Positions 925 to 24,711 of a stretch of DNA of 26,157 nt are shown in pieces. A program made the position numbers and the translations under genes. The DNA is from a virus. The notes beneath the pieces are model-generated. The model searched no databases. It was not told the origin of the DNA and worked only from the letters and a program-made list of their open reading frames with translations. The stretch is from positions 1-26,157 of the IMG/VR virus record IMGVR_UViG_3300022921_001533. One strand, 5' to 3'. Within the stretch, counting starts at the first letter, position 1, and the number at the start of each line of letters is the position of its first letter.

Positions 925-927
925 CTA

Positions 928-1736: not shown

Positions 1737-1742
1737 ATTCTT

Positions 1743-1771: not shown

Positions 1772-1779
1772 GTAATACT

Positions 1780-1785: not shown

Positions 1786-1790
1786 ATAAA

Positions 1791-3388: not shown

Positions 3389-3390
3389 TT

Positions 3391-6855: not shown

Positions 6856-7034
6856 ATATTATTGATGACATTGAAAAAGTTAGAGCGAAAAATAATGTGA
6901 ATTGGATGGATATTCTTCGTCTTGCTTTCACCCATGCCCCCAAAGAAGCTAAAGAGATTATGGGTAGAGTAAATAATCACGACAACAAGATTTCAGAATT
7001 ATTAAAAGAGTTATCTAAAAATGAAGAAAACTGA
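6834..7034 (+). CDS. Small helical protein of the nonulosonic-acid operon, function unknown
   Basis: A 66-residue protein without recognisable catalytic motifs. It is charged and predominantly helical: an N-terminal acidic stretch (DLDIIDDIEKVRAKNN), a short segment NWMDILRLAF with two aromatic residues that could pack against a partner, and a C-terminal amphipathic helix ISELLKELSKNEEN. It overlaps the formyltransferase by 22 bases and the CMP-sugar synthetase by 14, so its translation is tied to both, and its reading frame between those overlaps looks maintained. Its placement suggests a regulator or scaffold for one of these enzymes, but nothing in the sequence proves it. Confidence 0.65.
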   Translation: MYKRTDLDIIDDIEKVRAKNNVNWMDILRLAFTHAPKEAKEIMGRVNNHDNKISELLKELSKNEEN

Positions 7035-8435: not shown

Positions 8436-8725
8436 TTATTTATGTTGATATAGACAATACTATTTTTGACACTCAGGGCATGGATTACGAGGGCAGCAAA
8501 CCAATCCTTAACAGAATAGAAAAAATGAATAAACTATATGATGACGGTCATACCATTGTATATTGGACAGCTAGAGGTTCTGGTTCTGGTAAAGATTGGT
8601 CAGAAGTAACCAAAGAACAGTTTAAGCGTTACAGTGTGAAATATCACACTTTAAAATTTGAGAAACCTATATATGATATCTTTATAGACGACAAAAATAT
8701 AAACTCAGAAGAATTTTTTAAATGA
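8432..8725 (+). CDS. Small HAD-superfamily phosphatase-like protein
   Basis: A compact 97-residue protein of the haloacid dehalogenase fold. Motif I is VDIDNT (5-10), with the nucleophile D6 and acid/base D8. Motif II, YWTARG (44-49), gives the phosphate-binding threonine. K88 follows the acidic pair D86-D87 in FIDDKN as motifs III/IV. There is no cap domain. Proteins of this size and motif pattern are common in capsule and O-antigen clusters, where they may dephosphorylate a sugar phosphate, and this context agrees. The substrate cannot be read from sequence. It shares ATGA overlaps with both neighbours. Confidence 0.75.
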   Translation: MIIYVDIDNTIFDTQGMDYEGSKPILNRIEKMNKLYDDGHTIVYWTARGSGSGKDWSEVTKEQFKRYSVKYHTLKFEKPIYDIFIDDKNINSEEFFK

Positions 8726-9846
8726 AAAAAGTAATTATTACAGGGGTAACAGGACAAGACGGTAGCTTAATGGCTGACTATCTCTTGAAAAATACAGAGC
8801 ATACTATTGTTGCTGGTGTCCGCAGGTTGAGTATCAAGAATCACAATAACATCTCTCACTTGCTAGACAACCCCCGTTTCAAGCTTATTGATTTAGATGT
8901 TGCCGATCAAGCAAATACAGAGATGGTAATAGCAGAAGAGAAGCCAGATTACTTTATTAATCTTGCTGCTAATTCTTTTGTTGGAGTAAGCTGGAAAATG
9001 CCAGTTAATCATATGGAAACAAATGCTATGGCTGTATTGTTTCAATTAGAAGCTATCAGAAAACACTGCCCAAATTGCAGGTATTATAATGCAGGTTCTT
9101 CAGAGGAGTTTGGTGATGTTGTAGAAGTCCCCCAAAAAGAAACTCATCCACTCAGGCCACGAAGCCCATACGGTGTTTCTAAAACCTCTGCTAGACACAT
9201 GGTTAAGGTCTGGAGGGAGTCGTATGGACTATATGCTGTTCAAGGTTGGTTATTTAACCATGAGGGTGTGCGCCGTGGAGAAGAATTTGTTACTCGAAAA
9301 ATTACAAAGAATGTCGCTCGTATTTATAATGAATATAAAAACGATCACTTCAAACCACTTGAACTAGGTAATATGGATTCTATGAGAGATTGGAGCGATG
9401 CCGAAGATTTTGTCGAGGGTATATGGATGATGCTTAATCAAGAAAAATACAATTCAGCCCTCAAATGTCGCCTAAACAAATACAAGGCTATGTCAACGTC
9501 TCCAATCAAAGAAGAGCAGATTACAGCTTGGCTTTCTCAAAAAATTCAAGAATATGTGCTTTCTTCAAACGAAACGCATAAAATACGTGAATTTGTTGAA
9601 GAGGCTTTTAATTTTGCTGGATTTGCTAAGGATCAATGTCGATGGCAAGGTAAAGATTTAGAAGAAAAATACATACACGAAGATAAGGTGCTTGTGAAAA
9701 TAAATCCTGAATTTTACCGACCTGCGGAAGTTGAAATTTTATACGGAGATTCATCAAGAGCCAGAAACGAATTGGGTTGGCAACCTAAAACAAATTTCTT
9801 GAGTTTAGTCGAAAAAATGGTCAGAAACGACCTTAAAAAAGATTAA
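8722..9846 (+). CDS. gmd: GDP-mannose 4,6-dehydratase
   Basis: Converts GDP-mannose to GDP-4-keto-6-deoxymannose, the precursor of fucose, rhamnose, perosamine and related sugars. Diagnostic motifs are GVTGQDGSLMADYLL (8-22), NLAANSFVGVSW (80-91), NAGSSEEFGDV (123-133), catalytic Y150xxxK154 in YGVSK, FNHEGVRRGEEFVTRKI (178-194), DWSDAEDFV (223-231) and the ending RPAEVE...GDSSRARNELGWQP. At 374 residues it is near usual length, but the segment from about residue 243 to 275 looks like an extra insertion: ordinary enzymes go almost directly from the MMLNQ-like helix to YVLSSNETHKIREFVE. No fucose synthase or perosamine synthase is visible downstream, so the 4-keto product must be used by host or distant phage enzymes. 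It is the last gene of the sugar run. Confidence 0.92.
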   Translation: MKKVIITGVTGQDGSLMADYLLKNTEHTIVAGVRRLSIKNHNNISHLLDNPRFKLIDLDVADQANTEMVIAEEKPDYFINLAANSFVGVSWKMPVNHMETNAMAVLFQLEAIRKHCPNCRYYNAGSSEEFGDVVEVPQKETHPLRPRSPYGVSKTSARHMVKVWRESYGLYAVQGWLFNHEGVRRGEEFVTRKITKNVARIYNEYKNDHFKPLELGNMDSMRDWSDAEDFVEGIWMMLNQEKYNSALKCRLNKYKAMSTSPIKEEQITAWLSQKIQEYVLSSNETHKIREFVEEAFNFAGFAKDQCRWQGKDLEEKYIHEDKVLVKINPEFYRPAEVEILYGDSSRARNELGWQPKTNFLSLVEKMVRNDLKKD

Positions 9847-9925: not shown

Positions 9926-10897
9926 ATGATTTTTGAGGAACAAGTATCGAGGAAGCCGAACCATTATCCGTGGACAGAGGAGTTTACTGAAGCTATTTAC
10001 AATGGTTTTTGGACGGATAAGGAATTCTCCTTTTCAACTGATGTTCACGATTTTTCCGTGAATTTAACAGACCAAGAAAAGGAGATCATAGTAAGAACAT
10101 TATCAGCAATCGGTCAGATTGAAGTGGCTGTAAAAACCTTTTGGGTTAAGCTTGGTGACAATTTGCCACACCCTTCTTTAAATGACTTGGGGATTGCAAT
10201 GGGTAATGTGGAAGTTATTCACAATAACGCTTACGAGAGGCTTCTTGAGGTGCTTGGCCTAGAAGATATTTTCGAGAAAAACCTTGAACTGGATTTTATT
10301 CAAGGTCGAGTCGCTTACCTTAAAAAGTATACGCATAAATTCTATAAAAACAGCAGAAAGCAGTATGTTTACGCTCTTATACTGTTTACCCTTTTTGTTG
10401 AGAACGTCAGCCTTTTTTCTCAGTTCTATACGATTAACTGGTTTTCTCGTTATAAGAATGTCCTAAAGGATACTGATCAACAGGTAAAATATACAAGAAA
10501 CGAAGAAATGATCCACGCTCTTGCTGGAATGAAGATCATCAACACTATTCGTGAAGAGTATCCAGAATTTTTCGATCAAGAGCTTGAGGATCGCATCCTG
10601 CACGAAGCAGAACAAGCATACAAAGCAGAAGCCAAAATCATTGATTGGATGGTCAATGGTATCCAAGAAGAAGGGTTGAGCGCACCTATTCTTAAAGAAT
10701 TCATTAAAAATAGAATCAACGAATCCCTTGAGGGTATTGGCTTTCCAAAGCTTTTTGAAGTTGATCAAGAAATTTTAAGTTCTACCTCTTGGTTTGAGGA
10801 AGAATTGCTGGGCAATAACGCTACAGACTTTTTCCATTCCCGCCCTGTAGAATACAGCAAAAAATCACAAACTTTCAGTGCAGAAGAACTTTTCTAA
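9926..10897 (+). CDS. nrdB: Class I ribonucleotide reductase, small (radical-bearing) subunit
   Basis: Houses the diiron centre and tyrosyl radical used to reduce ribonucleotides to deoxyribonucleotides. The 323-residue length is usual for phage NrdB. All expected ligands can be placed: E66 in IEVAVK, the E96xxH99xxxY103 motif in GNVEVIHNNAY (Y103 is the radical tyrosine), E159 in FVENVSLFSQF and E194xxH197 in NEEMIHALAG. The retained tyrosine argues for class Ia/Ib rather than the tyrosine-free Ic type. The order small then large subunit reverses that of many bacteria. Its stop overlaps the nrdA start by one base (TAATG). The C-terminal end SAEELF is the tail expected to dock on the large subunit. 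Confidence 0.93.
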   Translation: MIFEEQVSRKPNHYPWTEEFTEAIYNGFWTDKEFSFSTDVHDFSVNLTDQEKEIIVRTLSAIGQIEVAVKTFWVKLGDNLPHPSLNDLGIAMGNVEVIHNNAYERLLEVLGLEDIFEKNLELDFIQGRVAYLKKYTHKFYKNSRKQYVYALILFTLFVENVSLFSQFYTINWFSRYKNVLKDTDQQVKYTRNEEMIHALAGMKIINTIREEYPEFFDQELEDRILHEAEQAYKAEAKIIDWMVNGIQEEGLSAPILKEFIKNRINESLEGIGFPKLFEVDQEILSSTSWFEEELLGNNATDFFHSRPVEYSKKSQTFSAEELF

Positions 10898-12543
10898 TGA
10901 ATAAATACTATTGGCTAAACACAGACTCGCAAACCTTCTTGAAGAAAGATTACCTTCTTCCAGAAGAAACCCCACTTCAAAGAATTAAAGATATTGCTCA
11001 AGCAGCAGAAAAATATCTAAAAATAAACGGCTTTGCCGACAAATTTGAGGATTACATGTCAAGGGGTTTTTATTCTCTTGCAAGTCCTGTTTGGGCAAAC
11101 TTTGGCCGCAAGCGTGGTTTGCCAATTTCGTGCAATGGTGTTTACATTGAAGATACAATGGAATCCATTCTTCAAAAGAATGCCGAAGTTGGTATGCAAT
11201 GCAAAAATGCAGCAGGAACTTCTGGTTATTTTGGAGACTTGAGAGAGCGCGGAGCTTCAATTAGCTCTGGCAGTTCTTCTTTTGGCCCTGTGCATTTTAT
11301 GGAGATGTTTGACAAGACTGCTTCCATTGTTTCTCAAGGCGGTGTGCGTAGAGGCAGTTTTGCTGCATACCTTCCAGTTGAACACCCAGATGTTAAAGAG
11401 TTCTTGAGAATTCGTGGCGAAGGTCACTCTATTCAAGAAATGTCATTCGCTGTTACTGTTACAGACGAATGGATGAACTCTATGATTGCTGGTGATCCAG
11501 AAAAGAGAGGTATTTGGGCGCAGGTGCTGAAAAAGCGTTCAGAAAGCGGATATCCTTATATCTTCTTTACAGACAATGCAAACAACAATGCCCCAGAAGT
11601 ATACAAAGATAAAAACAAAAAGATTTATGCTTCAAATCTTTGTGCAGAAATTTCCCTTTCATCAAGTGCTGATGAATCCTTCGTTTGTTGTTTATCTTCT
11701 TTGAATTTGATTCATTGGGACGAAATCAAACAAACTGACGCAATTGAAACACTGACGCATTTCTTGGATGCTGTCATGGAAGAATATATCCAAAAGACAA
11801 AAGACATTCCCTTCATGGAAAGCTCTCACAACTTTGCCAAGAGACAACGCGCTATTGGTGTTGGTGTTCTTGGTTGGCATTCTTTCTTGCAGAGCAAGAT
11901 GATTGCATTTGAGAGCATGGAAGCAAAAATGCTGAACGGAGAAATCTTTCAAACAATGAAAGAGCGAACATACAAAGCAAGCGAGGAACTTGCCCAAAGC
12001 TTGGGAGAACCAGAGTTGCTCAAGGGTTATGGACGCAGAAACACAACCACAATGGCAATTGCTCCTACAACCAGTAGTTCTTTCATCTTGGGTCAAGTAT
12101 CTCCTTCAATCGAACCACTTAACAGCAATTACTTTGTTAAGAATTTGGCAAAAGGAAAATTCACTTACAGAAATCCATACTTGGCAGATTTGCTTGAAAA
12201 ATATGAAAAGAACACTCCTGAAGTTTGGAAGTCTATCTTGGTTAAAGGTGGCTCTGTGCAACACCTAGAATTCCTTACAGACGAAGAAAAAGATGTATTC
12301 AAAACATTTGGCGAAATCTCTCAAAAAGAGATTGTGATTCAAGCAGCCCAACGTCAGAAATACATTGATCAAGGGCAATCTTTGAATCTTATGATTCCAC
12401 CCAAAACCTCTCCAAAGGAAATTAATTCTCTTTTAATTTTCGGTTGGGAGCAAGGAGTTAAAAGCTTTTATTATCAACGAAGCGCAAATCCAAGCCAAGA
12501 GCTTGCAAGGTCTATTTTGACCTGCTCCTCTTGTGAGGGATAA
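10897..12543 (+). CDS. nrdA: Class I ribonucleotide reductase, large (catalytic) subunit, compact form
   Basis: The catalytic subunit, only 548 residues against about 760 in E. coli. The missing part is mainly the N-terminal ATP-cone, so dATP shut-off by that domain is not expected. Active-site residues are all present: C79 in PISCNG, the N247-C249-E251 set in NLCAEIS, a cysteine at 264/265 in FVCCLSSLNL, the radical-transfer pair Y525-Y526 in KSFYYQRS, and the C-terminal shuttle pair in LTCSSCEG (C543, C546). IAPTTSSSFILGQVSPSIEP is the typical substrate phosphate-binding stretch. Together with the upstream subunit it would provide dNTPs for phage replication. The reducing partner (thioredoxin or glutaredoxin) is not in the window. 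Confidence 0.93.
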   Translation: MNKYYWLNTDSQTFLKKDYLLPEETPLQRIKDIAQAAEKYLKINGFADKFEDYMSRGFYSLASPVWANFGRKRGLPISCNGVYIEDTMESILQKNAEVGMQCKNAAGTSGYFGDLRERGASISSGSSSFGPVHFMEMFDKTASIVSQGGVRRGSFAAYLPVEHPDVKEFLRIRGEGHSIQEMSFAVTVTDEWMNSMIAGDPEKRGIWAQVLKKRSESGYPYIFFTDNANNNAPEVYKDKNKKIYASNLCAEISLSSSADESFVCCLSSLNLIHWDEIKQTDAIETLTHFLDAVMEEYIQKTKDIPFMESSHNFAKRQRAIGVGVLGWHSFLQSKMIAFESMEAKMLNGEIFQTMKERTYKASEELAQSLGEPELLKGYGRRNTTTMAIAPTTSSSFILGQVSPSIEPLNSNYFVKNLAKGKFTYRNPYLADLLEKYEKNTPEVWKSILVKGGSVQHLEFLTDEEKDVFKTFGEISQKEIVIQAAQRQKYIDQGQSLNLMIPPKTSPKEINSLLIFGWEQGVKSFYYQRSANPSQELARSILTCSSCEG

Positions 12544-12585: not shown

Positions 12586-12933
12586 TTGAGTAAAAAGCCA
12601 AAAAAAATCAATAAAAAAGAGATTCTTTTTCGTCTTGTAGATGTTCCCCCAACAGGGCGTAGGAATTTCTACGCAAGAGAAATGAAGTTTTTAAACGATC
12701 TTTGTGATCGTTATTCTCTTGAGTTTATGAATGTGGTCAGCTTTAATAAGAAGTTTGACTCACTAACTTATTTGGTTAGCCCGAAATTAAAGAAAACTTT
12801 AGATCAAAAGTTTAGAGCTTTTAATTTTTTACTGGACAAGAGTAGATATCCAGAGTATGATATAGGAGAAAAGGCAGGAAAAGATTCCGTAGTCAAAAAG
12901 AAGAAAACACTAAAAGATTTTTTAAATGAGTAA
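12586..12933 (+). CDS. Small basic protein of unknown function upstream of RecA
   Basis: A 115-residue protein starting at TTG; the next in-frame ATG is more than 30 codons in, and the reading is coherent from the TTG. It is lysine-rich at both ends (SKKPKKINKKE and KKKKTLKDFLNE), with a central part containing RRNFYAREMKFLNDLCDRY and LVSPKLKKTLDQKFRAFNFL, likely helices. No catalytic motif is visible. It is the first gene of the recombination operon and overlaps recA by 8 bases, so a DNA-binding accessory or recombinase mediator (a UvsY-like role) is conceivable from position and charge alone. I do not recognise the family. Confidence 0.7.
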   Translation: MSKKPKKINKKEILFRLVDVPPTGRRNFYAREMKFLNDLCDRYSLEFMNVVSFNKKFDSLTYLVSPKLKKTLDQKFRAFNFLLDKSRYPEYDIGEKAGKDSVVKKKKTLKDFLNE

Positions 12934-14050
12934 AATAGAAGAAACAAACAAGATGCTTGAAAACTTCCTCAAGGCAAACAAGGAAGATCATTATAATTTC
13001 GAAGAAGAGATTGATTATAAAGTATCAAGCGGCTCTTTACAGCTTGATCTACAACTAGGAGGCGGTTTCGGTCCCGGTTTACATCGCTTCGTTGGAATCA
13101 ATGAAGGAGGCAAAACTTCGGAGTCTTTAGAAGTAATGAAGAACTTTTTAAATGATCTCCCAAACACAAAAGCCGTTTATTTTAAAGCAGAGGGAAGGCT
13201 TTCTCCAGAAATGAAAGAAAGGTCTGGAGTTAAATTTGTTTATAACGCAGAAGATTGGAAAGAAGGAACATGTTTTGTATTTGAATCAAATATTTATGAA
13301 ACTGTAGTTGATTTAATGAGGCAATTAGTCACAAAAAATCCAGAAAAAACTAAGTATTGTTTCTTGCTTGATTCTGTTGATGGTCTTATTGCTAAGAATG
13401 ATTTAGATAAAAACTTTGATGAATCTGCAAAAGTTGCAGGTGGAGCGGTTATTGCTGCTACCTTCATGAAGAAGATGGCTATCTCTCTAGCCAAAAGAGG
13501 ACACATGGCAATTTTCGTTTCTCAAGTTCGTGCAGATATCAAGCTAGACCCCTATACAAAAGCACCAATAAGACAAACATCTGCAACAGGAGGCAATGCC
13601 TTACTACACTTTGCTAATTTCATTATTGAATTTGAACCAAGATTTAGAGACGATTTAATTCTTAAAGACCCAACCAATAAAAAAGTTTCTGAAAAGAATC
13701 CACCAATTGGTCACTTTGCAAAAATAACAGTCAAGAAGTCTCCAAATGAGACAACTAACAGAACACTTTGCTACCCAATTAGATATGGGCGCAAGAATGG
13801 AACATCTATTTGGATTGAAAAAGAGATTGTAGACCTTCTTTATGCTTGGGAGTTTGTGAATAAAAAAGGAGCTTGGATCAATGGTTCTGACGAATTTATT
13901 GAAATGCTTAATGAAGCAGGTTTTGATGAAGACGTTCTTAAGTTTCCAATTCAGGGTGATGCAAAACTATTTTCAATCATCGAAGAAAACAACGAGCTTT
14001 CCAAGTTCTTGATTAAATTCTTTAAAAAAGCAATCAATGAGTTTTCATGA
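12926..14050 (+). CDS. RecA/UvsX-family recombinase
   Basis: A 374-residue ATP-dependent strand-exchange protein. The RecA start VSSGSLQLDLQLGGGFGPG (33-51) leads to Walker A GINEGGKTS (57-65), which keeps GxxxxGKT but not the usual PESSGKT wording. AVYFKAEGRLS (83-93) carries the catalytic glutamate region, CFLLDSVDGL (145-154) is Walker B, and IFVSQVRADI matches the RecA motif that senses nucleotide and contacts DNA. SATGGNALLHFANF resembles the RecA loop L2 and following helix, with GG retained. The C-terminal 90 residues differ from bacterial RecA and are closer in style to phage recombinases. It probably serves recombination-dependent replication and repair with the nuclease, helicase and primase encoded after it. 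Confidence 0.9.
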   Translation: MSKIEETNKMLENFLKANKEDHYNFEEEIDYKVSSGSLQLDLQLGGGFGPGLHRFVGINEGGKTSESLEVMKNFLNDLPNTKAVYFKAEGRLSPEMKERSGVKFVYNAEDWKEGTCFVFESNIYETVVDLMRQLVTKNPEKTKYCFLLDSVDGLIAKNDLDKNFDESAKVAGGAVIAATFMKKMAISLAKRGHMAIFVSQVRADIKLDPYTKAPIRQTSATGGNALLHFANFIIEFEPRFRDDLILKDPTNKKVSEKNPPIGHFAKITVKKSPNETTNRTLCYPIRYGRKNGTSIWIEKEIVDLLYAWEFVNKKGAWINGSDEFIEMLNEAGFDEDVLKFPIQGDAKLFSIIEENNELSKFLIKFFKKAINEFS

Positions 14051-14455: not shown

Positions 14456-14689
14456 ATGAAAGAAGATAATGAAATAGAGTTTTCAATTCCAGAAAACCTA
14501 ATCGAAAAACTATATGAATTTAGCGGTGATACTGATAAATACAAAGGAGTTATTTTAGCAGTATGCTCTGAAAATGGCGATCCTATTGTATATCACAGGT
14601 TTGATTGCGGTTTAACAGAACTTGGCTTAAAGAAAGCTGTTCAAGAATTTTGCTCGGATACAACAAACAATCAAAACTATGATTTATAA
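14456..14689 (+). CDS. Small acidic protein of unknown function
   Basis: A 77-residue acidic protein. The ATG at 14456 is one base after the preceding stop; an ATG at 14429 in frame would overlap the nuclease gene and is less likely. IEFSIPENLIEKLYEFSGD and YKGVILAVCSENGDPIVYHR suggest a small alpha/beta domain, and a helix with LGLKKAVQEFC follows. No motif of known enzymes is present. It overlaps the replicative helicase gene by 11 bases, a position where helicase loaders or regulators may occur, but nothing in the sequence proves that. Confidence 0.6.
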   Translation: MKEDNEIEFSIPENLIEKLYEFSGDTDKYKGVILAVCSENGDPIVYHRFDCGLTELGLKKAVQEFCSDTTNNQNYDL

Positions 14690-16190
14690 TTACGAATTAG
14701 AAAAACAATTACTCGCTGGTTTAATAAAAAACCCAAATGATTTTTCTGAAATCTCAAGCTTTATCGAGGCTTCTGATTTTTATTCAGAACAAACAAGTCT
14801 AAACAGCAGCATCTTTACCGTTATTAAGCAAGCAATTGATGCTGGTGAAGACATTGATGAAATCATTATCGCACAAAGAGTTTCTAATATCGGGCTATCC
14901 TTTGAAGACAATCTCAATCCGTCTGATTACATTAAGTCCTTGGCAATGCGAAAGGTTCCAAACGGAAACCTTATCAAGACTGCAAAGGAATTAAAAAAGT
15001 TTTCTATCAGAAGGGGTATTGCTATGGCTTCACAAAATGTAATGAAGTCAATGAAGTCTCTGCCTATGGAAAGCTCTTTGGCTGAGATTGTAGAAAAAGC
15101 AGACTCTATTTATAATTCTCAAATCAATCTTTACGAGATTGGAAACGATTCTCCAGAAAACATTTATGAAGAAATGGAGTATATTGTTGAAGAAAGAGGC
15201 AACAATCCCATGACTGAATTTGGGATGATGGGGCCACACAATAAATTAAATAAAATTTATGGCTCATTGCTAAGGGCTGGAAATATTACTGTTATTGTTG
15301 CACGTTCTGGTGTTGGTAAAACTCAATACTGCATGGACTATTCAACAAAGGTAAGCATGAAGTATGACGTTCCTGTTCTTCACTTTGATAATGGTGAAAT
15401 GAGCAAAGAGGAACTAATAATGAGACAGTGCGCTTCTCTTTCTGGTGTTCCCATGCATCTTATCGAGAGTGGTAAGTGGAGACAGGCTGGTGAAGAAGTT
15501 GTAAACAAGATTAGGTCTGTTTGGCCAAAGATAAAAAAACTTAAGTTTTACTATTACAATGTTGGCGGCATGGATGTTGATTCAATGATCAGCACACTTA
15601 AGAGGTTTTATTACTCAAAGGTTGGTAGAGGCAATAAAATGGTGTTCAGTTTTGATTACATTAAAACAACATCAGAAAACCAGCATGGCAAAAACGAGTG
15701 GCAGGTTGTTGGTGAAATGGTTGACAAGTTTAAGAAGTGTATTCAAAAAGAGATTCTTGAAGATGGTGAACCTGTTATTCCAATGATTACTTCTGTCCAA
15801 TCAAATAGAAGCGGCATCACAAATAACAGAAACTCAGAAAACATTGTTGACGATGAAAGCATTGTTTCTCTTTCTGATAGGATTACTCAATTCTGCTCGC
15901 ATATGTTTATCTTAAGAAATAAAACAGTAGATGAAATTGAACATGATGGAAGAATGTTTGGAACGCACAAGCTAATCAATGTAAAAGCTCGTCACTTGGG
16001 CGAAGATATTGCTGGCGCAGTTGAACCTGTTCAATTCGGAGACACCTTAAGAAAGAATTTTATAAACCTAGACTTTAGAAACTTTAATATTACTGAATGT
16101 GGAGACTTGCGAGATATCGTGAGACACCATAGCGGCGAAGCCGTAATTGACAATGATGCAAGCAATGAAGAAATCCCAAGCCTTGATTAA
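14679..16190 (+). CDS. dnaB: DnaB-family replicative DNA helicase
   Basis: A 503-residue hexameric helicase that unwinds duplex DNA ahead of the polymerase. The N-terminal domain (about 1-105) begins YNYELEKQLLAGLIKNP, as in DnaB, with the characteristic ASDFYSEQ segment. The RecA-like motor starts near 190. Walker A is ARSGVGKT (208-215), LHFDNGEMSKEEL is the H1a region with its glutamate, MVFSFDYIKTTS is Walker B, and MITSVQSNRSG plus the basic NVKARHLGED are the late motifs. The YIK after the Walker B aspartate replaces the common YLQ. It precedes a primase, as in the T4 gp41-gp61 pairing, and is linked by overlaps to genes on both sides. Confidence 0.93.
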   Translation: MIYNYELEKQLLAGLIKNPNDFSEISSFIEASDFYSEQTSLNSSIFTVIKQAIDAGEDIDEIIIAQRVSNIGLSFEDNLNPSDYIKSLAMRKVPNGNLIKTAKELKKFSIRRGIAMASQNVMKSMKSLPMESSLAEIVEKADSIYNSQINLYEIGNDSPENIYEEMEYIVEERGNNPMTEFGMMGPHNKLNKIYGSLLRAGNITVIVARSGVGKTQYCMDYSTKVSMKYDVPVLHFDNGEMSKEELIMRQCASLSGVPMHLIESGKWRQAGEEVVNKIRSVWPKIKKLKFYYYNVGGMDVDSMISTLKRFYYSKVGRGNKMVFSFDYIKTTSENQHGKNEWQVVGEMVDKFKKCIQKEILEDGEPVIPMITSVQSNRSGITNNRNSENIVDDESIVSLSDRITQFCSHMFILRNKTVDEIEHDGRMFGTHKLINVKARHLGEDIAGAVEPVQFGDTLRKNFINLDFRNFNITECGDLRDIVRHHSGEAVIDNDASNEEIPSLD

Positions 16191-17226
16191 TCCAGAAACC
16201 ACTAGGTCTATCCTTGAAAAAATGGGATATGATTTATTGGATTGTGGAAATCATTGGAGAACAAAAGCTATTTATCGTGGAGGCGATAATCCAACTGCTA
16301 TTCAGATTTACAAAGATACTGGAGTATGGACTGACTATATTCATGGCAACGGTAAATCAAAACCATTAAAAGCCCTAATCAACCTTACAGTTAAAAATGA
16401 TCCAACTCAGTGTAAAGAACTTGAAGAAGCTTTAGAAAAAGAAGACACTGTAGAATACACACCTATAGAATTAATTGAAATGCAAAAAATTTATCCCAAC
16501 GAATGGTTAGACAAACTATTCCCAAATTACAGTTTTTATAAAAACAGAAACATCTCCGAAGAGACGCAAAAGTTTTTTAAAACTGGTTTAGCATCTGGCG
16601 GTCAATTGTATCGCAGGATGGTCTTTCCAATATATAATGAACACTCTCAAATTATTGGGTTTTCTGGTAGAAGGGTTGATGAAAATCACTCCATCAAATG
16701 GAAACATATTGGAAGAAAAACAACTTGGCTTTATCCTTCCTACATTCCAGCGGAATTTACTGTTGATCAGATTATTGATAAACAGAAAGAAGTTTATCTA
16801 GTAGAAAGTATTGGAGATGCAATGGCTCTTTATGAACAAGGAATCAAAAATGTTCTTGTTATCTTTGGAACCAATGTAAGCCCTGCTATTATTTCTTACC
16901 TCTGCGGTAAAGACCTAAACAAAGTTTACATATGCACGAATAATGATTTTGATAGCTCTCAAAACAACGGCTTACTAGGAGCTTTTAAAGCTTATGTAAA
17001 GTTAAGTGGATATTTTAACCTAGATCAGCTTGAAATCAAATTGCCGCCAAAACCATACAATGATTTCGGCAAAGCGCACGAAGAAGGTTATAATTTTACT
17101 GAATGGAAATCTAGATTAATTGATACCGAAAAACAACAAGAACATATTTTTTCCTATGTAAAAAATCATATCACAATGTTCTCAAAAGAACAGGCTAACA
17201 AATTTTTAAAATTAAATGAGCAATAA
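16153..17226 (+). CDS. DnaG-type primase with TOPRIM domain, zinc cysteines absent
   Basis: A 357-residue primase expected to lay down RNA primers with the adjacent helicase. The N-terminal 70 residues keep the fold-typical wording NHWRTKAIYRGGDNPTAIQI and TGVWTDYIHGN but have no CxxH/CxxC zinc ligands. The middle has RRMVFPIYN and IIGFSGRRV, the DnaG RNA-polymerase signature. The TOPRIM domain has VESIGDAMAL (217-226) with E218, and CTNNDFDSS (261-269) with the acidic pair D265/D267. It is short of DnaG's C-terminal helicase-binding domain, as in many phages. Possible starts are TTG 16147 and ATG 16153, 16156 or 16165; the family-like part begins after 16165, so the true start may be there. 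It overlaps the helicase gene by up to 38 bases. Confidence 0.85.
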   Translation: MMQAMKKSQALINPETTRSILEKMGYDLLDCGNHWRTKAIYRGGDNPTAIQIYKDTGVWTDYIHGNGKSKPLKALINLTVKNDPTQCKELEEALEKEDTVEYTPIELIEMQKIYPNEWLDKLFPNYSFYKNRNISEETQKFFKTGLASGGQLYRRMVFPIYNEHSQIIGFSGRRVDENHSIKWKHIGRKTTWLYPSYIPAEFTVDQIIDKQKEVYLVESIGDAMALYEQGIKNVLVIFGTNVSPAIISYLCGKDLNKVYICTNNDFDSSQNNGLLGAFKAYVKLSGYFNLDQLEIKLPPKPYNDFGKAHEEGYNFTEWKSRLIDTEKQQEHIFSYVKNHITMFSKEQANKFLKLNEQ

Positions 17227-18319
17227 TAAAAAAGAATCTAAATACTTATCTGCAAGTAGAATCAAGACGCTACAAAGCTGTTCTTGGCTTTACTGGTGTA
17301 AGTATATTTTGAAAATGCCAGATAAGAAAAACGATGGTTCAAGCAGAGGAACTATCTGCCATTTGATTTTTGAAGTTCTTGGAAACAAAAGACATAAAAA
17401 GCATTTTGATAAAATCATGAAGACACAAGATGTTTTCTCTGTTGAATCAATTAAAAGATTAATAATTAAACACGCAAAAATTTTAGAAGTAGATGATTTT
17501 GAAAACATTTCATTAATCAAGCAGATGATCTTTAATGGTCTTTCTTATGACTTCTTTGGCAAAAAGCTCGGCACACCAACACAATCTTTTTCAGAGCGAG
17601 AATTTGCTATTGAGTTTGATGATGATAATTATTATTTCAAGATTAGGGGCTTTATTGATAAACTTTTCCTTTACAATAAAAAGAAGTATGCAGTAATTAG
17701 AGACTTTAAAACTAGCAAATCTGTTTTCTTACCAACTGAAATTGAGGATAACATGCAAGACCTTATGTATAGTTTTGCAGTGACCCAAATGTTTCCAGAA
17801 TATCAAAACACTCAAAGTGAATTTTTATTTTTAAAGTTTGACTTGGACGATCAAAAAACTAACGAATATGTTCAAAGCGAACTTTTTAATGGAGATAAAT
17901 TGGTTGCAAATTTTCAAAAGTCTCATGTAGAATCTGGCGTTGTAAGAATGCAACCAATAACCCAAGGAGAGCTTGAAGGATTTAAGCATGAGTTAACAGA
18001 GATTCAAAAACTTATTGATAATTTTTCAGAAAAAGACGCAGTTAAAAACTTTGCTGTTAAAAAAGGTTTTCCAAAAGATGGAACTTTTAGCGGGAAGCTT
18101 ATGTGTGGATTTGCCAGCAAAAAAGGAGAACTTAAAAAAGATGGCAGTCCCAAATGGCACTGTGCAATGAAATTTGATTTTAATTATTTTCATATTAAAA
18201 ATGCCGATGGAGATGTAATCAATTCCGTGTTTGAGGAAGAATTCAATGAATCTTTGGTTCCAGAGGGTGGCACATATGAAATGAAACATTATGCTGGTTG
18301 CCCAGCACATTGTTCTTGA
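17216..18319 (+). CDS. Cas4/RecB-like PD-(D/E)XK exonuclease with possible Fe-S cysteines
   Basis: A 367-residue nuclease of the RecB/Cas4/AddB group, expected to trim or resect DNA ends. The start YLSASRIKTLQSCSWLYWCKY (10-30) is the family's opening. RGTICHLIFE (44-53) gives the histidine H49. IRGFIDKL (143-150) provides D148 and VIRDFKTSKS (160-169) the D163-x-K165 catalytic pair. NMQDLMYSFAV (179-189) is the QxxxY helix. Cysteines at 22 or 28 in the N-terminus and a C-terminal CPAHC (362-366) recall the Fe-S staple of Cas4 and AddB, although the fourth ligand is not certain. It is the last gene of the RecA-helicase-primase run, overlapping the primase by 11 bases, and lies just before a new promoter. 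Confidence 0.8.
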   Translation: MSNNKKESKYLSASRIKTLQSCSWLYWCKYILKMPDKKNDGSSRGTICHLIFEVLGNKRHKKHFDKIMKTQDVFSVESIKRLIIKHAKILEVDDFENISLIKQMIFNGLSYDFFGKKLGTPTQSFSEREFAIEFDDDNYYFKIRGFIDKLFLYNKKKYAVIRDFKTSKSVFLPTEIEDNMQDLMYSFAVTQMFPEYQNTQSEFLFLKFDLDDQKTNEYVQSELFNGDKLVANFQKSHVESGVVRMQPITQGELEGFKHELTEIQKLIDNFSEKDAVKNFAVKKGFPKDGTFSGKLMCGFASKKGELKKDGSPKWHCAMKFDFNYFHIKNADGDVINSVFEEEFNESLVPEGGTYEMKHYAGCPAHCS

Positions 18320-18347: not shown

Positions 18348-18373
18348 GCATGATTCCATTGTTTAAATCATGC
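18348..18373 (+). repeat. 8-bp perfect inverted repeat at the start of the PHP gene
   Basis: GCATGATT (18348-18355) and AATCATGC (18366-18373) are perfectly complementary with a 10-base centre, covering the start codon and first codons. A nested AATCA/TGATT repeat (18342-18346 and 18351-18355) overlaps the -10 box, and ATGCC/GGCAT (18335-18339 and 18347-18351) encloses it. No T-run follows, so an operator or start-codon hairpin is more likely than a terminator. Confidence 0.45.
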
Positions 18374-19090
18374 TATTCTATAGGCAAAAGCATTCTCACG
18401 CTTGAAGAATCCTCTGTGGATGAAGGTTCAGATAGCATTATAGAGCTATGTCAGCAAAACAAAATTCAAGACTTGATTTTGGTTGAAGACAGCATGACAG
18501 GATTCATGAAAGCATTTCTTTCCTGCAAAAAAGCTGATCTTAATTTAATCTTTGGTTTAAGAATTACATGCTGCAATTCAATTTCTGATGAAAATGAAAA
18601 ATCAGATCATAAAGTAATAATCTTCGCAAAGGATGATGAAGGCTGTAAAATTCTAAACAGAATTTCTTCTTTTGCTGCTGTTGAAGGAAACGGAAAAATT
18701 GACTTCAAAATTTTAAACTCAATGTGGAACGACAGTGTTGAAATGGCTATCCCCTTTTACGATTCTTTCATATTTAACAACAATATGACAATGAGTAAAT
18801 GCATTCCTGATTTCAGCAAAATCAAACCAACCTTCTTTATAGAAGATAATGGTTTACCTTTTGATCAAATTGTAAAAAACTCTGTAGAGTCTTTCTGTAA
18901 AGATAAATACGAAACACAATTAGTAAAATCAATTTATTACAATAAAAGAGAAGATCACGAAGCCCTCATTACATATAAGATTCTTTGCACAAGAAATTTC
19001 GGCAAGGTTTCAACCCTTGATTCTCCTAACCTAAACCACTTTGGCAGCAATGAATTCTGCCTAGAAAGCTACTTAGAATATGAACGCTGA
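18350..19090 (+). CDS. Stand-alone PHP domain of DNA polymerase III alpha, metal site degenerate
   Basis: A 246-residue protein that aligns by eye with the N-terminal PHP domain of DnaE. It shares the opening strand followed by SIGKSILTLEE (where DnaE has EYSLLDG), the helix SIIELCQQNKIQDLILVEDSMTGFMKAFLSCKKADLNLIFGLRI in three consecutive parts (DnaE: helix, TDHGNMFG, FY..AK, IKPIIGCE), the strand KVIIFAKDDEGCKILNRISSFA, and a later IDFKILNSM. The metal-binding HxH and TDHGN residues are missing (SCYSIG and VEDSMTG instead), so phosphatase or exonuclease activity is unlikely and a structural role as a scaffold for polymerase and proofreader is probable. It shares an 11-base overlap with the exonuclease gene. 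The assignment rests on pattern and position because the identity is low. Confidence 0.65.
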   Translation: MIPLFKSCYSIGKSILTLEESSVDEGSDSIIELCQQNKIQDLILVEDSMTGFMKAFLSCKKADLNLIFGLRITCCNSISDENEKSDHKVIIFAKDDEGCKILNRISSFAAVEGNGKIDFKILNSMWNDSVEMAIPFYDSFIFNNNMTMSKCIPDFSKIKPTFFIEDNGLPFDQIVKNSVESFCKDKYETQLVKSIYYNKREDHEALITYKILCTRNFGKVSTLDSPNLNHFGSNEFCLESYLEYER

Positions 19091-19712
19091 TTTACTTAGA
19101 TTCGATCAAAAGCAAAAGTATCTAGTAATTGATACAGAGACAGAAGGCTTGAATTTGGTTTCAAGCAGACCTTGGCAAGTTTCTTGGCTCGTTTGCCAAG
19201 GAGATAAAATTCTTGAAGAGCATGATATTTATGTTAAGTGGAAAAACCTTAAAGTATCAAAAGGTGCTGCTAAAATTACTGGATTTACCACAGAAGAATA
19301 TGAACGCAAAGCAGAAAACAATAAACAAGCTTGGGATAAAGTAGCTTCATATCTTTATGATCCACAATATAAAATTGTTGGACAAAACCTTTTAGGTTTC
19401 GATGTTTATATTTTGAATACTTGGAGACGGCTTAGAAACATGAAATCTGATTATTCTTTTGTTAACAGAATCATTGACACAAGATCGCTTGGCGTTTCAA
19501 TCTCCAGAAACATTCCATTGAACAAAGATAATTTCTTATCTTGGCAATATAAAATGCTTGAAATTAAAACAAAAAGAGGCGAGAATTCAATGGGGACATT
19601 GCTGAAGAAATACAATATTCCTCACGATCCCAAAAAGCTTCACGATGCACTTTATGATATTAACATGAATTATAAAGTTTTTAGAAAACAACTATACGAA
19701 GTTGAGCTATGA
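19080..19712 (+). CDS. DnaQ-like 3'-5' exonuclease (DEDDh proofreading subunit)
   Basis: A 210-residue proofreading exonuclease. ExoI is VIDTETEGL (16-24; D18, E20), ExoII is GQNLLGFDVYIL (101-112; D108) and ExoIII is LHDALYDIN (187-195; H188, D193), which completes the DEDDh set. The helix after ExoI begins RPWQVSWLV, as in DnaQ and PolC-type domains. It begins 11 bases before the end of the PHP gene and overlaps the polymerase gene by 4 bases, so the three are probably translated together and act as one enzyme. In PolC of Firmicutes the exonuclease lies inside the PHP domain of one chain; here the same parts are separate genes in the order PHP, Exo, Pol. Confidence 0.88.
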   Translation: MNADLLRFDQKQKYLVIDTETEGLNLVSSRPWQVSWLVCQGDKILEEHDIYVKWKNLKVSKGAAKITGFTTEEYERKAENNKQAWDKVASYLYDPQYKIVGQNLLGFDVYILNTWRRLRNMKSDYSFVNRIIDTRSLGVSISRNIPLNKDNFLSWQYKMLEIKTKRGENSMGTLLKKYNIPHDPKKLHDALYDINMNYKVFRKQLYEVEL

Positions 19713-22270
19713 ATATAAAAGAATTTAAGAAATACGAAAAACCATTTCCTGTAGGTGTAAAGCTTCCAGAAATCAAAATCGAAGATAAGTATTACGATCT
19801 TGTTGATTGTCAGCGAGGCTCTAACAACTTTCAGTTTTTAAGAAAACTCTGCTTTAAAGGCGTTAAAGACTTAGGTATTGATAATGCAGATAACAAACAA
19901 GAATATTATGACCGCCTAACAATGGAGCTTAATATTCTTAATGATCTTGGTTTTGTAGATTATATTTTATTGAATTGGGATGTTCTTAATTTCTGCAAGG
20001 AAGCTGGTATTCCAACTGGCGCTGGTCGAGGCAGCGCGGCAGGTAGCTTGGTGTTATACACCATTGGTGTTACTAATATTGATCCAATTCAGTATGATCT
20101 TTTCTTTGAAAGATTTGTTTCTCAAAGCCGAGCTAGAAAGATTGAAGATGATGGCGAAATTTATTTGGATGGCTCTCTCTTGGCAGATATTGATAACGAT
20201 ATTAGTTATGATCGCCGTGTAGAGGTGATAGAATACATTAATAAAAAGTATAAAGGAAAAACATGTAAAATACTAACCCTCAATACTTTGAGTAGCAAAC
20301 TTTGCATCAAAGAGTGTGGAAAAATTATTGAAGATTTATCAGAAACAGAAGTCAACCAAATTAGTGACACCATACCAAAACAGTTTGGTAAAGTTGCTAA
20401 ACTAAAAACAGCCTATGAAGAAAATGAGCAATTTAAGAAGTATGCAAAAAAATATAAAAACGCATATAAAATTGCAAGAAAAATTGAAGGCTTGGCAAAA
20501 AACACTGGCGTTCATCCTTCTGGTATTTGTATATCAAGATTTAGTCTTGAGGATGTTATGCCACTTCAAAAGACAAATGATGGAGCGTTAGTATCTGGTT
20601 ATGACATGGATGATGTAGCGAGCCTTAGTGTGAAGTTCGATATTCTTGGACTAAGAACGCTTTCTGTGGTTCATGATGTTTGTAATCAGATTGGTATTAA
20701 AGTATCAGATATTGATCCGCACCATCCATCTATTTATGCAGCATTAGCCTGTCTTGAAGCCCCACAGGGTCTTTTCCAAATTGAAGCCGACACAAATTTC
20801 AAGGTTTGCAAAGATATAGCCCCAAGAAACCTTGAGCAGCTTTCCGCTGTAGTTGCTATTGCTCGACCGGGAGCCTTGGACTTTAAGAATAATTATGCAG
20901 AATATGTAAGAACTGGCGAATCTCAATCTGTTCACTCATTCTTTGATGATATTCTTGAGTATACTGGAGGCATCCCACTTTACCAAGAACAGCTTATGAA
21001 AATGGCTGTAAAGGTTGGATTTACTCTAGATGAATCAGAGCAACTTAGAAGAATTGTTGGTAAGAAAAAAGTAGATCAAATGCCAGCTTGGAAGTCTAAG
21101 ATCAAAGACAAGATAGAAGAGAATAATTTAGACCCTGCTATTGGAGAAGTCTTATGGAAGGTTGCAGAAGATTCTGCGAACTATTCCTTTAACAAATCTC
21201 ACTCTATTAGCTATGCTTATCTTGCGGCTGTTACTATTTATTTGAAATTTAATTATACTCAGGAATTTTTCTTAAGCTTGCTTAAATTTGCTCGCTTTGA
21301 ACCAGACTCTCATGAAGAAATTGCAAGAATTTCTCAAGAGCTTTCGATGTTCGATATTAAGCTTCTTCCACCAGACCTAAATCTTTCAAATCTTGACTTT
21401 AAAAAAGATGGCAAAGATATACGTTATGGACTAAACTCAATTAAAGGGGTTTCAGACAAAGTGATAGAATCTTTGATTGAATTCAGAGAATCTTCTTTTG
21501 AAAACAAATACGAAGTATTCCTCTCCGCAAAACAAAGCGGAATTAATATTGGCACACTATCAGCATTTATTCAAGCTGGTATGCTTGATTCATTCATTGA
21601 TAATGATCGCTGTAGACTTGTTCTTGAGGCTCAAACATTTAACATTCTTACTGAAAGAGAAAAAAGAAATATTATAGAGCTAGGCAAATTGTTTAATTAC
21701 GATGTTCTTAACACAATACATGATTGTCGCAAAAATCAAACGATTGCAGACGATGGTAAAATTCTGTTTAAAGAAAGTAGATTTCAAACCTTTAAATCAA
21801 AATACGAGGTTTACAAGAAAATCTACGAGCAGAATAAGCAGCATATAAAGTTTGCAAACTGGTTTTTTGAAAACAAGCTTCTTGGTTATAGTTACTCCTA
21901 CAAGCTTAGGGATATATTTAAATCAAATGACAGAGAAAGCTTTGTTTCTTCACAAGAAATCAAGAATCAAGTAAATCGCTCAAACATTAGGTTTGTTGGT
22001 GTGCTTTCAGATATTATGAGAAGAGTTAGCTCTAGTGGTAACAAATATGCTAGATTAACACTAAATGATGAAATTGGTCATGTTGAGGGTCTTTTTATGG
22101 ACAATTCTAGAGAAGAAAAGTTGACAAATTACATAAACTCTGGTAAAAAGCTACCAGAGAAAGACGATATCGTTGTTGTTTGTGGTTCGAAAAACGATGA
22201 TATTGTTTTTGTAGATAATATCTTTGTCTTGAAAGACAAAATTTATATGAAACTGTCAGATATAAAATGA
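19709..22270 (+). CDS. dnaE: DNA polymerase III alpha subunit, polymerase core without PHP
   Basis: The 853-residue replicative polymerase of the C family, starting where a full DnaE would leave its PHP domain. Visible are GAGRGSAAGSLVLYTIGVTN (104-123) and the FERFV helix. The catalytic triple in LLADIDNDIS (157-166) has D160, D162 and D164, corresponding to DnaE's PDFDVDF. VSGYDMDDV plus KFDILGLRTL (309-318) carries D311. GLFQIEAD and the fingers motifs through NKSHSISYAYLAAVT (495-509) follow. A helix-hairpin-helix region lies around 570-640 and an OB fold from about 758 (RFVGVLSDIMRRVSSSGNKY). The tau-binding C-terminal domain of E. coli DnaE is absent. PHP plus core sum to about 1,100 residues, close to an intact DnaE. 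The 4-base overlaps on both sides imply coordinated synthesis. Confidence 0.93.
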   Translation: MNIKEFKKYEKPFPVGVKLPEIKIEDKYYDLVDCQRGSNNFQFLRKLCFKGVKDLGIDNADNKQEYYDRLTMELNILNDLGFVDYILLNWDVLNFCKEAGIPTGAGRGSAAGSLVLYTIGVTNIDPIQYDLFFERFVSQSRARKIEDDGEIYLDGSLLADIDNDISYDRRVEVIEYINKKYKGKTCKILTLNTLSSKLCIKECGKIIEDLSETEVNQISDTIPKQFGKVAKLKTAYEENEQFKKYAKKYKNAYKIARKIEGLAKNTGVHPSGICISRFSLEDVMPLQKTNDGALVSGYDMDDVASLSVKFDILGLRTLSVVHDVCNQIGIKVSDIDPHHPSIYAALACLEAPQGLFQIEADTNFKVCKDIAPRNLEQLSAVVAIARPGALDFKNNYAEYVRTGESQSVHSFFDDILEYTGGIPLYQEQLMKMAVKVGFTLDESEQLRRIVGKKKVDQMPAWKSKIKDKIEENNLDPAIGEVLWKVAEDSANYSFNKSHSISYAYLAAVTIYLKFNYTQEFFLSLLKFARFEPDSHEEIARISQELSMFDIKLLPPDLNLSNLDFKKDGKDIRYGLNSIKGVSDKVIESLIEFRESSFENKYEVFLSAKQSGINIGTLSAFIQAGMLDSFIDNDRCRLVLEAQTFNILTEREKRNIIELGKLFNYDVLNTIHDCRKNQTIADDGKILFKESRFQTFKSKYEVYKKIYEQNKQHIKFANWFFENKLLGYSYSYKLRDIFKSNDRESFVSSQEIKNQVNRSNIRFVGVLSDIMRRVSSSGNKYARLTLNDEIGHVEGLFMDNSREEKLTNYINSGKKLPEKDDIVVVCGSKNDDIVFVDNIFVLKDKIYMKLSDIK

Positions 22271-24711
22271 GTGTAAATAAATCAGTGACTTTAAAAGAAT
22301 ACAACCTTACTCCCAGAGCTAAAAAAGCTATTAAAGATGCTCAGAAATTTGCTCAAGACATGGGCAATAAAACTGTAAACAACTTACATATTTTTTATGG
22401 TTGTATCTTCAACGCAAACGGCGATCTTAATAAACTTTTAAATAGAATTTATTTAACCGCAGACCATATTGACATGGAAAGTCTATTGGATGTTGCTTAC
22501 GAAGAGTTTCCAGAAAAGTTTACATTAACAGAATCCTCTGATCCTTGGCATCCAGAATTGACTAAAGCCCTCAAAAAAGCAAGCGACATTTCTAATGACT
22601 TTGATCATTGCTATATCGCAATTGAACATTTATTGCTTGGTATACTTGAGACTTCACCTTATATTTTAGAATACCTTTCTGAAATGGGTTATGATATTAA
22701 AAAGAATCTGTCCCAATTAATTAATTTAGTTTCTGGAGAAAAGGTCTTAGAGGAACACTCAATTAGCGATGATTATGAAAATTTTAATTTACATGATTTA
22801 GAGAACATAGAAGAATTGACAAAAAAAGAAGAGTCAATCCATGAATTGCAGAAATTTGGATCAAATTTAAACTATTTGGCAGCACAAGGTAAAATTCAAC
22901 CTGTGTATGAAAGAGAAAATGAAATTTCAAGCCTGATTGAAGTCTTATCCAAGAAAAACAAAAGCAATGCAATCCTAATCGGAGAGGCAGGTGTTGGCAA
23001 AACCGCTATTGTTGAGGGTCTTGCTATGAAAATTTACAATGCAGAGGTTCCAGCAAATATATTGAATTTTGAAATTTACAATATTGATTTAACCGCAATG
23101 GTTTCTGGAACCAAATACAGAGGCGAATTTGAGCAGAAATTCGAAAAATTAATGAAAATTGTCAAAAACAATCCACACATTGTTCTGTTCTTTGACGAAA
23201 TTCACAACATATTTAAGGCTGGCGGCGCGGATAACTCTATGGATGCGTCCAACATCCTCAAACCATACTTGGCGCGTGGAGAGATAAAATGCATAGGCGC
23301 AACCACCACAGAAGAATATCAAAGCATTTTTGAGAAAGATGCTGCAATGAAGCGAAGATTTGAATCAATTGATATTAAAGAGCCAAATAAATCTCAAACT
23401 CTTAAAATTGTTGAAAATAGTATAAATTCTTACGAGGAATTCCATAATGTTAAATTCAGTAAACCAATACTCAAGTATGCTATTGATTGTTGTGAAAGAT
23501 TCTTGGCTCACAAGAGATTCCCAGACAAAGCCTTTGATGTGATTGATCAAATTGGATCAAAAGTAAAGATAAAGAACCTAAAACCATTAGATGGTTTAAA
23601 AAATAAACACAAAAATATTATTAACACTCTACAAAAAGATAATGTAAATATTAAAAAAGTAGAGAAATTAATAAAAGATTATGTTCAAGACTTAGCAAGT
23701 TTACAGTCTGAGGAAAAACAAAATCCAACAAACATTAAAATGTCTGATGTAAATTTGGTTATCTCAGAACATAGTAAGATATCTTTGTCTGAAATTGAAT
23801 CAAGTTCAAAAAACTTTGATAAATTTTATAACAACATCAAAAAAGAAGTTTTTGGTCAAGATGAAAACCTTTCTAAAATTAACGATATCTTATGTTGTTC
23901 TAAAATAGGTTTAAACGAAGAAAACAAGCCATTGGCTAGTTTCTTCTTTGTTGGCCCAACCAGTGTCGGCAAAACCTACACAGCCAAAAAGATGGCAAAG
24001 TATTTCTACGGCAATGAAAAAGCTTTTATTCAAGTAAATATGTCAGAGCTACAGGATTCAACTGGAGTTTCTAAGTTAATTGGCGCAAATGCTGGATATG
24101 TTGGTTACGAAAAAGGCGGTTTTCTTACTAATTTTGTCAGGAATAATCCCAACTGTGTCGTATTGTTCGATGAAGTAGAAAAAAGTAGCCCTAAAATCTT
24201 AAACCTACTGCTCCACCTTCTTGATGAAGGATACATGATGGACAACTTAAACAGAAAAGTAGATTTTTCAAAAGCTTTAATTGTATTGACAAGCAACATT
24301 GGACATGCTGAAAGCAAAAAGAAATCAATGGGTTTCTTGTCAGAGGAAACTCCTAGAAATGATTCCTACAGAAAATCGGTTAAATCTCAACTTAAGCCAG
24401 AGCTTATTGCTAGAATTAATGAAATCATTGTGTTTAATGATCTTGATGATAACGGATTGACTAAAATCATCGAATCAGAAGTGTGCAAGTTTAAGGATAG
24501 ATTATTGGGTCAGGGTATACAATTAAAAATAAATAAAACTCTTTACAAGGATTTGCTTGAGGTTTTAAAATCCGAAAATATCCATGCTAGAGAAATAAAA
24601 GATACGCTAAAACAAAAATTAATCATTCCAACAGCCAAATTTGTTGTTTCAAACCCCAAAAAATCAAGTATCTCAATAAAAATGCTTGACAAAACAATCA
24701 ATATTCAGTAA
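22267..24711 (+). CDS. ClpA/ClpC-type double AAA+ unfoldase
   Basis: An 814-residue Hsp100 unfoldase. The N-terminal Clp-N repeat domain covers about 10-150 (LTPRAKKAIKDAQKFA; HCYIAIEHLLLGIL). The first AAA+ module has Walker A GEAGVGKT (239-246), pore loop GTKYRGEFE (281-289) and Walker B VLFFDEIH (306-313). The second has GPTSVGKT (563-570), pore loop AGYVGYEKGG and Walker B VVLFDEVEK (631-639). The linker between modules is short, so the long coiled coil of the disaggregase ClpB is missing. A tripeptide MGF (688-690) stands where ClpA has IGL and ClpC VGF, the loop that docks on ClpP. No ClpP gene is in the window. It overlaps the polymerase gene by 4 bases, suggesting replisome remodelling or targeted degradation during replication. 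Confidence 0.9.
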   Translation: MSVNKSVTLKEYNLTPRAKKAIKDAQKFAQDMGNKTVNNLHIFYGCIFNANGDLNKLLNRIYLTADHIDMESLLDVAYEEFPEKFTLTESSDPWHPELTKALKKASDISNDFDHCYIAIEHLLLGILETSPYILEYLSEMGYDIKKNLSQLINLVSGEKVLEEHSISDDYENFNLHDLENIEELTKKEESIHELQKFGSNLNYLAAQGKIQPVYERENEISSLIEVLSKKNKSNAILIGEAGVGKTAIVEGLAMKIYNAEVPANILNFEIYNIDLTAMVSGTKYRGEFEQKFEKLMKIVKNNPHIVLFFDEIHNIFKAGGADNSMDASNILKPYLARGEIKCIGATTTEEYQSIFEKDAAMKRRFESIDIKEPNKSQTLKIVENSINSYEEFHNVKFSKPILKYAIDCCERFLAHKRFPDKAFDVIDQIGSKVKIKNLKPLDGLKNKHKNIINTLQKDNVNIKKVEKLIKDYVQDLASLQSEEKQNPTNIKMSDVNLVISEHSKISLSEIESSSKNFDKFYNNIKKEVFGQDENLSKINDILCCSKIGLNEENKPLASFFFVGPTSVGKTYTAKKMAKYFYGNEKAFIQVNMSELQDSTGVSKLIGANAGYVGYEKGGFLTNFVRNNPNCVVLFDEVEKSSPKILNLLLHLLDEGYMMDNLNRKVDFSKALIVLTSNIGHAESKKKSMGFLSEETPRNDSYRKSVKSQLKPELIARINEIIVFNDLDDNGLTKIIESEVCKFKDRLLGQGIQLKINKTLYKDLLEVLKSENIHAREIKDTLKQKLIIPTAKFVVSNPKKSSISIKMLDKTINIQ

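What the first reader, a model, noticed from the sequence alone, without database searches (positions are those of the whole stretch)
18350..22270. DNA polymerase III split into three overlapping genes: PHP, exonuclease, polymerase core
A degenerate PHP domain, a DEDDh exonuclease and a PHP-less C-family core lie in consecutive genes with 11- and 4-base overlaps. The order mimics PolC, where the exonuclease sits within PHP, but here the parts are separate chains. Core plus PHP add up to a normal DnaE length. It may be an intermediate between DnaE plus DnaQ and PolC architectures, or the product of an exonuclease gene inserting into dnaE at the PHP-core boundary.
Basis: partly seen in the sequence, partly recalled or inferred. 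Interest (0 to 1): 0.75.

Follow-up and report, generated by a model that had tools for sequence, protein, structure and literature searches.

The report
Phage replicase split into three subunits
A widespread group of uncultivated phages makes its DNA-copying enzyme as three separate proteins (a catalytically dead PHP domain, a proofreading exonuclease and the polymerase body), although the PHP domain is normally an integral part of the polymerase chain in bacteria.

Summary
Window 18350-22270 holds three separate ORFs: a whole, metal-site-less DnaE PHP domain (246 aa), a DEDDh exonuclease with all catalytic residues (210 aa) and a PHP-less DnaE-type core (853 aa), overlapping by 11 and 4 nt. 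The same order recurs in 73 complete loci (61 distinct triplets, core identity down to about 42%) of an uncultivated phage lineage, within a fixed DnaB-primase-PDDEXK-PHP-exo-core-Clp cluster. No fused copy was found. In some members unrelated genes, such as an IMPDH-like gene, sit between the three, so they are true cistrons. By structure, PHP 1-246 matches E. coli alpha 6-248 and core 1-841 matches 261-1073: the cut lies exactly at the PHP/palm border. The PHP has lost its metal site but is under strong purifying selection. Best reading: a DnaE replicase whose PHP works in trans as a structural or docking subunit, with the exonuclease doing the proofreading. The 'PolC intermediate' idea is not supported: PHP is uninterrupted, OB is C-terminal and profiles favour DnaE. 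Insertion of an exonuclease gene at the border remains possible. Plain PHP/core splits also arose independently in Rhodococcus and Microbacterium phages. Physical assembly of the three chains is untested.

The parts
18350..19090 (+). PHP subunit, 246 aa: complete DnaE-type PHP domain without its metal site
   Evidence: Pfam/PHROG/NCBIfam; AF2 pLDDT 89, Z 23.4 to Taq DnaE residues 7-259, E. coli 6-248; metal motif lost; dN/dS about 0.03-0.09 in close relatives
19080..19712 (+). DEDDh 3'-5' exonuclease, 210 aa, catalytic D18 E20 D108 H188 D193
   Evidence: PF00929 3e-18; catalytic residues invariant in 77 of 78 loci, the other being incomplete
19709..22270 (+). PHP-less DnaE-type polymerase core, 853 aa: palm, thumb, fingers, HhH, OB
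   Evidence: DNA_pol3_alpha 215 bits, finger 98 bits, HHH_6 59 bits; AF2 pLDDT 87, model 1-841 matches E. coli alpha 261-1073; catalytic Asp invariant in 79/79
14679..16190 (+). DnaB-like replicative helicase (same conserved cluster)
   Evidence: PF03796/PF00772; order conserved
16147..17226 (+). DnaG-like primase (same cluster)
   Evidence: DNAG_N, Toprim; order conserved
17216..18319 (+). PD-(D/E)XK nuclease (same cluster)
   Evidence: PF12705; order conserved
22267..24711 (+). ClpA/B-like AAA+ ATPase (same cluster, overlaps core by 4 nt)
   Evidence: PF07724, phrog_4871; order conserved
12926..14050 (+). RecA/UvsX-like recombinase (same cluster)
   Evidence: phrog_97 1.7e-34; order conserved

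Best explanation
This is a DnaE-type replicative DNA polymerase of a large uncultivated phage lineage whose alpha subunit is made as two chains, with the proofreading exonuclease gene lying between them. The core synthesizes DNA. The PHP protein, which has lost its metal site, re-associates with the core in trans at the normal PHP/palm interface and serves as a structural and docking subunit, as the dead PHP does within the E. coli alpha chain. The DEDDh protein is the proofreading exonuclease that replaces PHP proofreading. Overlapping genes make the three chains together for co-assembly. Shown: the three ORFs, their domains and folds, the exact cut site, conservation, intact or lost active sites, and selection. 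Inferred: polymerase and exonuclease activities, PHP-core and PHP-exonuclease binding, and co-translational assembly.
For: The cut site loses nothing: PHP 1-246 = E. coli alpha 6-248 and core 1-841 = 261-1073. The same PHP-exo-core order holds in every locus that covers all three genes, 61 distinct triplets, none fused. Catalytic residues are invariant in exonuclease and core. The dead PHP is still under strong purifying selection, dN/dS about 0.03-0.09. The genes sit in a fixed replication cluster RecA-DnaB-primase-PDDEXK-PHP-exo-core-Clp, and no PolA or PolB was found in seven contigs of 99-164 kb. In 17 cultured phages with DnaE, the 3 with a degraded PHP site all encode a PF00929 exonuclease, against 2 of 14 with an intact site; adding this clade, Fisher p 0.005, or 0.018 with sister phages merged. 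This matches the bacterial trend, and the structural role of the dead E. coli PHP, reported in PMC3666897. Plain PHP/core splits recur in Weaselvirus and Krampusvirus, so the junction tolerates a chain break.
Against: The exonuclease ends right after its catalytic domain, so it lacks a tail like the one E. coli epsilon uses to bind PHP. No beta-clamp or T4-type clamp gene and no canonical clamp-binding motif were found; the T4-clamp search had no positive control. Nothing is known experimentally about this lineage.
Confidence: 0.78

Rival explanations
1. An evolutionary intermediate between DnaE+DnaQ and PolC, or a broken-up PolC.
For: Gene order PHP-exo-core resembles PolC; the exonuclease profile hits PolC-type exonuclease about as well as DnaQ; the AU test cannot reject the clade next to PolC (p = 0.40).
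Against: PHP is a complete uninterrupted domain, whereas PolC has the exonuclease inside PHP; OB is C-terminal as in DnaE; core scores DnaE 400 bits versus PolC 30 bits; PolC NCBIfam cut-off is missed by far; PHP fold is nearer DnaE (Z 23) than PolC (Z 18-19).
Confidence: 0.07
2. A single historical insertion of a dnaQ-like gene at the PHP/core border of a phage dnaE caused both the split and the gene order (a statement on origin, compatible with the best explanation).
For: Exact border cut, exonuclease always between the two halves, one monophyletic clade.
Against: Other phages carry the PHP/core split without an exonuclease between, so split first and exonuclease later is equally possible; later inserts such as an IMPDH-like gene show that genes enter this gap freely.
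Confidence: 0.45
3. The PHP gene is a decaying remnant without function; core and exonuclease suffice.
For: Metal site fully lost; weak sequence similarity to other PHPs.
Against: Kept in all complete loci, strong purifying selection, 20 invariant residues in 30 divergent members, confident complete fold.
Confidence: 0.04
4. The parts are rejoined into one chain by frameshifting, inteins or trans-splicing.
For: Short gene overlaps in many members.
Against: Spacing varies from -23 to more than 1100 nt with whole genes in between; start codons are present; no extra intein-like sequence is attached to either half.
Confidence: 0.03

Closest known systems
Bacterial DnaE1 Pol III alpha (E. coli, T. 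aquaticus, M. tuberculosis) with separate epsilon
   Same: Same PHP, Pol3, HhH and OB folds, same catalytic Asp, separate DEDDh exonuclease; dead PHP as in E. coli
   Different: PHP is its own chain; exonuclease gene lies between PHP and core; exonuclease lacks an epsilon-like C-terminal tail; no clear clamp motif or CTD
Rhodococcus phages Grayson gp102-gp103 and Peregrin gp99-gp100 (Weaselvirus), Microbacterium phage NarutoRun gp56-gp57 (Krampusvirus)
   Same: PHP and polymerase core in two adjacent genes
   Different: PHP metal site intact, no exonuclease gene between, separate origins (AU test p about 1e-10 against one origin with this clade)
PolC
   Same: PHP, DEDDh exonuclease and Pol3 core functions together
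   Different: PolC is one chain with exonuclease inside PHP and OB/NTD at the N terminus; core sequence not PolC-like
Bacteroidetes DnaE1 with exonuclease fused N-terminal to PHP (PMC3919608)
   Same: DnaE with a dedicated DEDDh exonuclease at the PHP end
   Different: Fused, exonuclease before PHP, PHP still joined to core
Pbunavirus (Pseudomonas phage PA01) exonuclease + DnaE
   Same: DEDDh gene overlapping a phage dnaE whose PHP site is degraded
   Different: PHP and core fused; exonuclease upstream

Membership tests
DnaE-type C-family DNA polymerase (alpha) | Pol3 palm/thumb/fingers with three catalytic Asp | tested here: met
   Asp invariant in 79/79
DnaE-type C-family DNA polymerase (alpha) | OB domain C-terminal to HhH | tested here: met
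   Model aligns to Taq DnaE through residue 1122
DnaE-type C-family DNA polymerase (alpha) | PHP domain in the same polypeptide | tested here: not met
   Separate ORF in all loci with complete genes
DnaE-type C-family DNA polymerase (alpha) | Internal clamp-binding motif and C-terminal tau-binding domain | tested here: inconclusive
   No canonical motif seen; chain ends after OB
PolC | Exonuclease inserted inside the PHP domain | tested here: not met
   PHP 1-246 is a whole domain; exonuclease follows it
PolC | OB/NTD before PHP | tested here: not met
   PHP starts at residue 1 and OB is at the core C terminus
PolC | PolC profile above cut-off (TIGR01405) | tested here: not met
   39 and 13 bits against a cut-off of 1043
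DnaQ/epsilon-like proofreading exonuclease | DEDDh catalytic residues | tested here: met
DnaQ/epsilon-like proofreading exonuclease | E. coli-type C-terminal PHP-binding tail | tested here: not met
   Protein ends at the end of the catalytic domain
DnaQ/epsilon-like proofreading exonuclease | Binds the polymerase and edits mismatches | not testable with these tools
   Needs co-folding or biochemistry
Catalytic PHP exonuclease | Nine-residue metal motif HHDHEH[C/H]DH | tested here: not met
   Lost in all 30 members aligned

The most novel reading that the evidence does not exclude
A standing three-subunit C-family replicase in which a free, catalytically dead PHP protein is an obligate hub that holds the exonuclease and the core together, so polymerization and editing are switched by protein association in trans. 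This would be a subunit plan for Pol III that, as far as I found, has not been described.
Probability: 0.35. Interest if true: 0.75.

Novelty: new variant of a known kind. Interest (0 to 1): 0.6.

Why it matters
In bacteria the PHP domain is described as strictly conserved in replicases and as a major structural element of Pol III, which unfolds cooperatively (PMC3666897). A lineage that keeps it as a separate, catalytically dead, strongly conserved protein gives a natural way to ask what PHP does apart from catalysis, and how polymerase and exonuclease communicate. It can be tested directly by mixing three purified chains.

Tried and rejected
PolC intermediate (architecture and profile tests). 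Assembly error or chance split (61 distinct triplets). Frameshift, intein or trans-splicing (variable spacing with inserted genes). Single origin with the Grayson and NarutoRun splits (AU p about 1e-10). The exact place of the core among DnaE groups stayed unresolved: long stem, joins DnaE2 in the quick tree with probable long-branch attraction, and AU tests reject none of PolC, DnaE2, PA01 or ZY21/B1VFA as neighbours. Whether the exonuclease comes from DnaQ or PolC is unresolved. Scans for more distant or fused relatives: L067 gave only itself, L201 gave 4 loci, the Grayson core gave none. The closest human-gut 'phage' hits (H1, H51) look like bacterial contigs: ordinary DnaE beside bacterial genes. 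T4-like clamp and Gp23 searches gave nothing, but had no positive control. Literature searches found no description of the split; preprints and subscription papers were not covered.

Full report
Observation. The three ORFs are at the stated coordinates with overlaps of 11 and 4 nt. Pfam, PHROG and NCBIfam name them PHP (27.8 bits, just above the cut-off), DEDDh exonuclease (RNase_T 3e-18) and DnaE core (DNA_pol3_alpha, finger, HHH_6). The PHP and the core hit different, consecutive stretches of the same family phrog_405 (51-256 and 323-1078).

Generality. A scan of IMG/VR returned 80 loci. tblastn and ORF analysis show PHP-exo-core on one strand in every locus long enough. A second scan reached relatives at about 42% identity with the same order and no fusion. 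In all there are 73 complete loci and 61 distinct triplets. Overlaps of -4, -11 or -14 nt are common. In some members, genes sit between the three: an IMPDH-like gene in L035, L045 and L059, a 57-aa protein, and an apparent DprA/RNase H-like ORF in L067 (identified by eye). The products must therefore be separate chains. The flanking order RecA-DnaB-primase-PDDEXK-PHP-exo-core-Clp is fixed. No cultured phage is close: the best tblastn identities are about 30%, and the PHP protein has no cultured-phage match apart from one weak hit to a likely bacterial contig.

Fold and cut site. AlphaFold2 models of PHP (pLDDT 89) and core (pLDDT 87) match DnaE. PHP 1-246 aligns to Taq 7-259 and E. coli 6-248, Z 23.4 and 22.8. 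The core aligns to E. coli alpha 261-1073 with OB at its end. The cut falls between alpha residues 248 and 261, and nothing is missing. PolC matches are weaker for both (Z 18-19 for PHP; profile 30 bits against 400 for the core).

Active sites and selection. The PHP metal motif is lost in all 30 members aligned. The exonuclease DEDDh residues are present in 77 of 78 sequences, the other being incomplete, and the core Asp residues in 79 of 79. dN/dS for PHP is about 0.03-0.09 between close relatives, so the dead PHP is most likely functional. Among 17 cultured phages with DnaE, a PF00929 exonuclease is encoded by all 3 with a degraded PHP (PA01, ZY21, B1VFA) but by only 2 of 14 with an intact site. 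With this clade added, Fisher p is 0.005, or 0.018 after merging sister phages; phylogenetic correction is incomplete. This extends to phages the bacterial trend reported in PMC3666897.

Relatives of the split. Rhodococcus phages Grayson and Peregrin (PHP 303 aa + core 942/959 aa, 8-nt overlap) and Microbacterium phage NarutoRun (345 + 767 aa) also have PHP and core in separate genes, with intact PHP sites and no exonuclease between. Grayson groups with fused Bmoc, and NarutoRun with fused Troll4. One origin with this clade is rejected (p about 1e-10), and so is Grayson with NarutoRun (p 0.0025). The split thus arose at least three times; the interposed exonuclease is particular to this lineage in what I saw.

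Phylogeny limits. The clade is monophyletic (support 100) on a long stem; its nearest kin cannot be fixed. Architecture, not the tree, is what speaks against a PolC intermediate.

Mechanism. Most likely the core polymerizes, PHP docks at the normal palm interface and stabilizes it, and the exonuclease edits. The exonuclease has no epsilon-type tail but a conserved N-terminal 'LLR/LLK' stretch, a candidate docking peptide (inference). Seven contigs of 99-164 kb hold no PolA or PolB, and six hold a clamp-loader-like AAA protein. No clamp was recognized, which leaves the processivity factor open.

Noticed in passing
L210:1987-5379 (Pseudomonas phage ZY21) and L211:1984-5352 (Rhizobium phage B1VFA): Phage DnaE with a degenerate PHP and a C-terminal uracil-DNA-glycosylase superfamily domain (PF03167); 68 related loci of B1VFA in IMG/VR.
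   Followed up: no
L168:5019-8751 and L218:1830-5181: Independent PHP/core gene splits in Weaselvirus (Grayson, Peregrin) and Krampusvirus (NarutoRun).
   Followed up: partly
window 100-9846: Phage-borne glycan cluster: two NeuB-type synthases, DegT aminotransferase, polysaccharide synthase/epimerase, formyltransferase, cytidylyltransferase, GDP-mannose dehydratase, glycosyltransferase.
   Followed up: no
L035:1287-2312, L045:4225-5178, L059:4208-5176: An IMP-dehydrogenase-like gene (identified by eye from its sequence) inserted between PHP and exonuclease genes.
   Followed up: partly
L082: A contig of this phage lineage binned in a Lokiarchaeota MAG, probably a binning error.
   Followed up: no
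window 10897-12543: Short (548 aa) ribonucleotide reductase large chain next to the small chain.
   Followed up: no
L005, L058, L076, L063, L201, L059 records: Clamp-loader-like AAA protein but no recognizable sliding clamp; the clamp may be too diverged for Pfam.
   Followed up: partly
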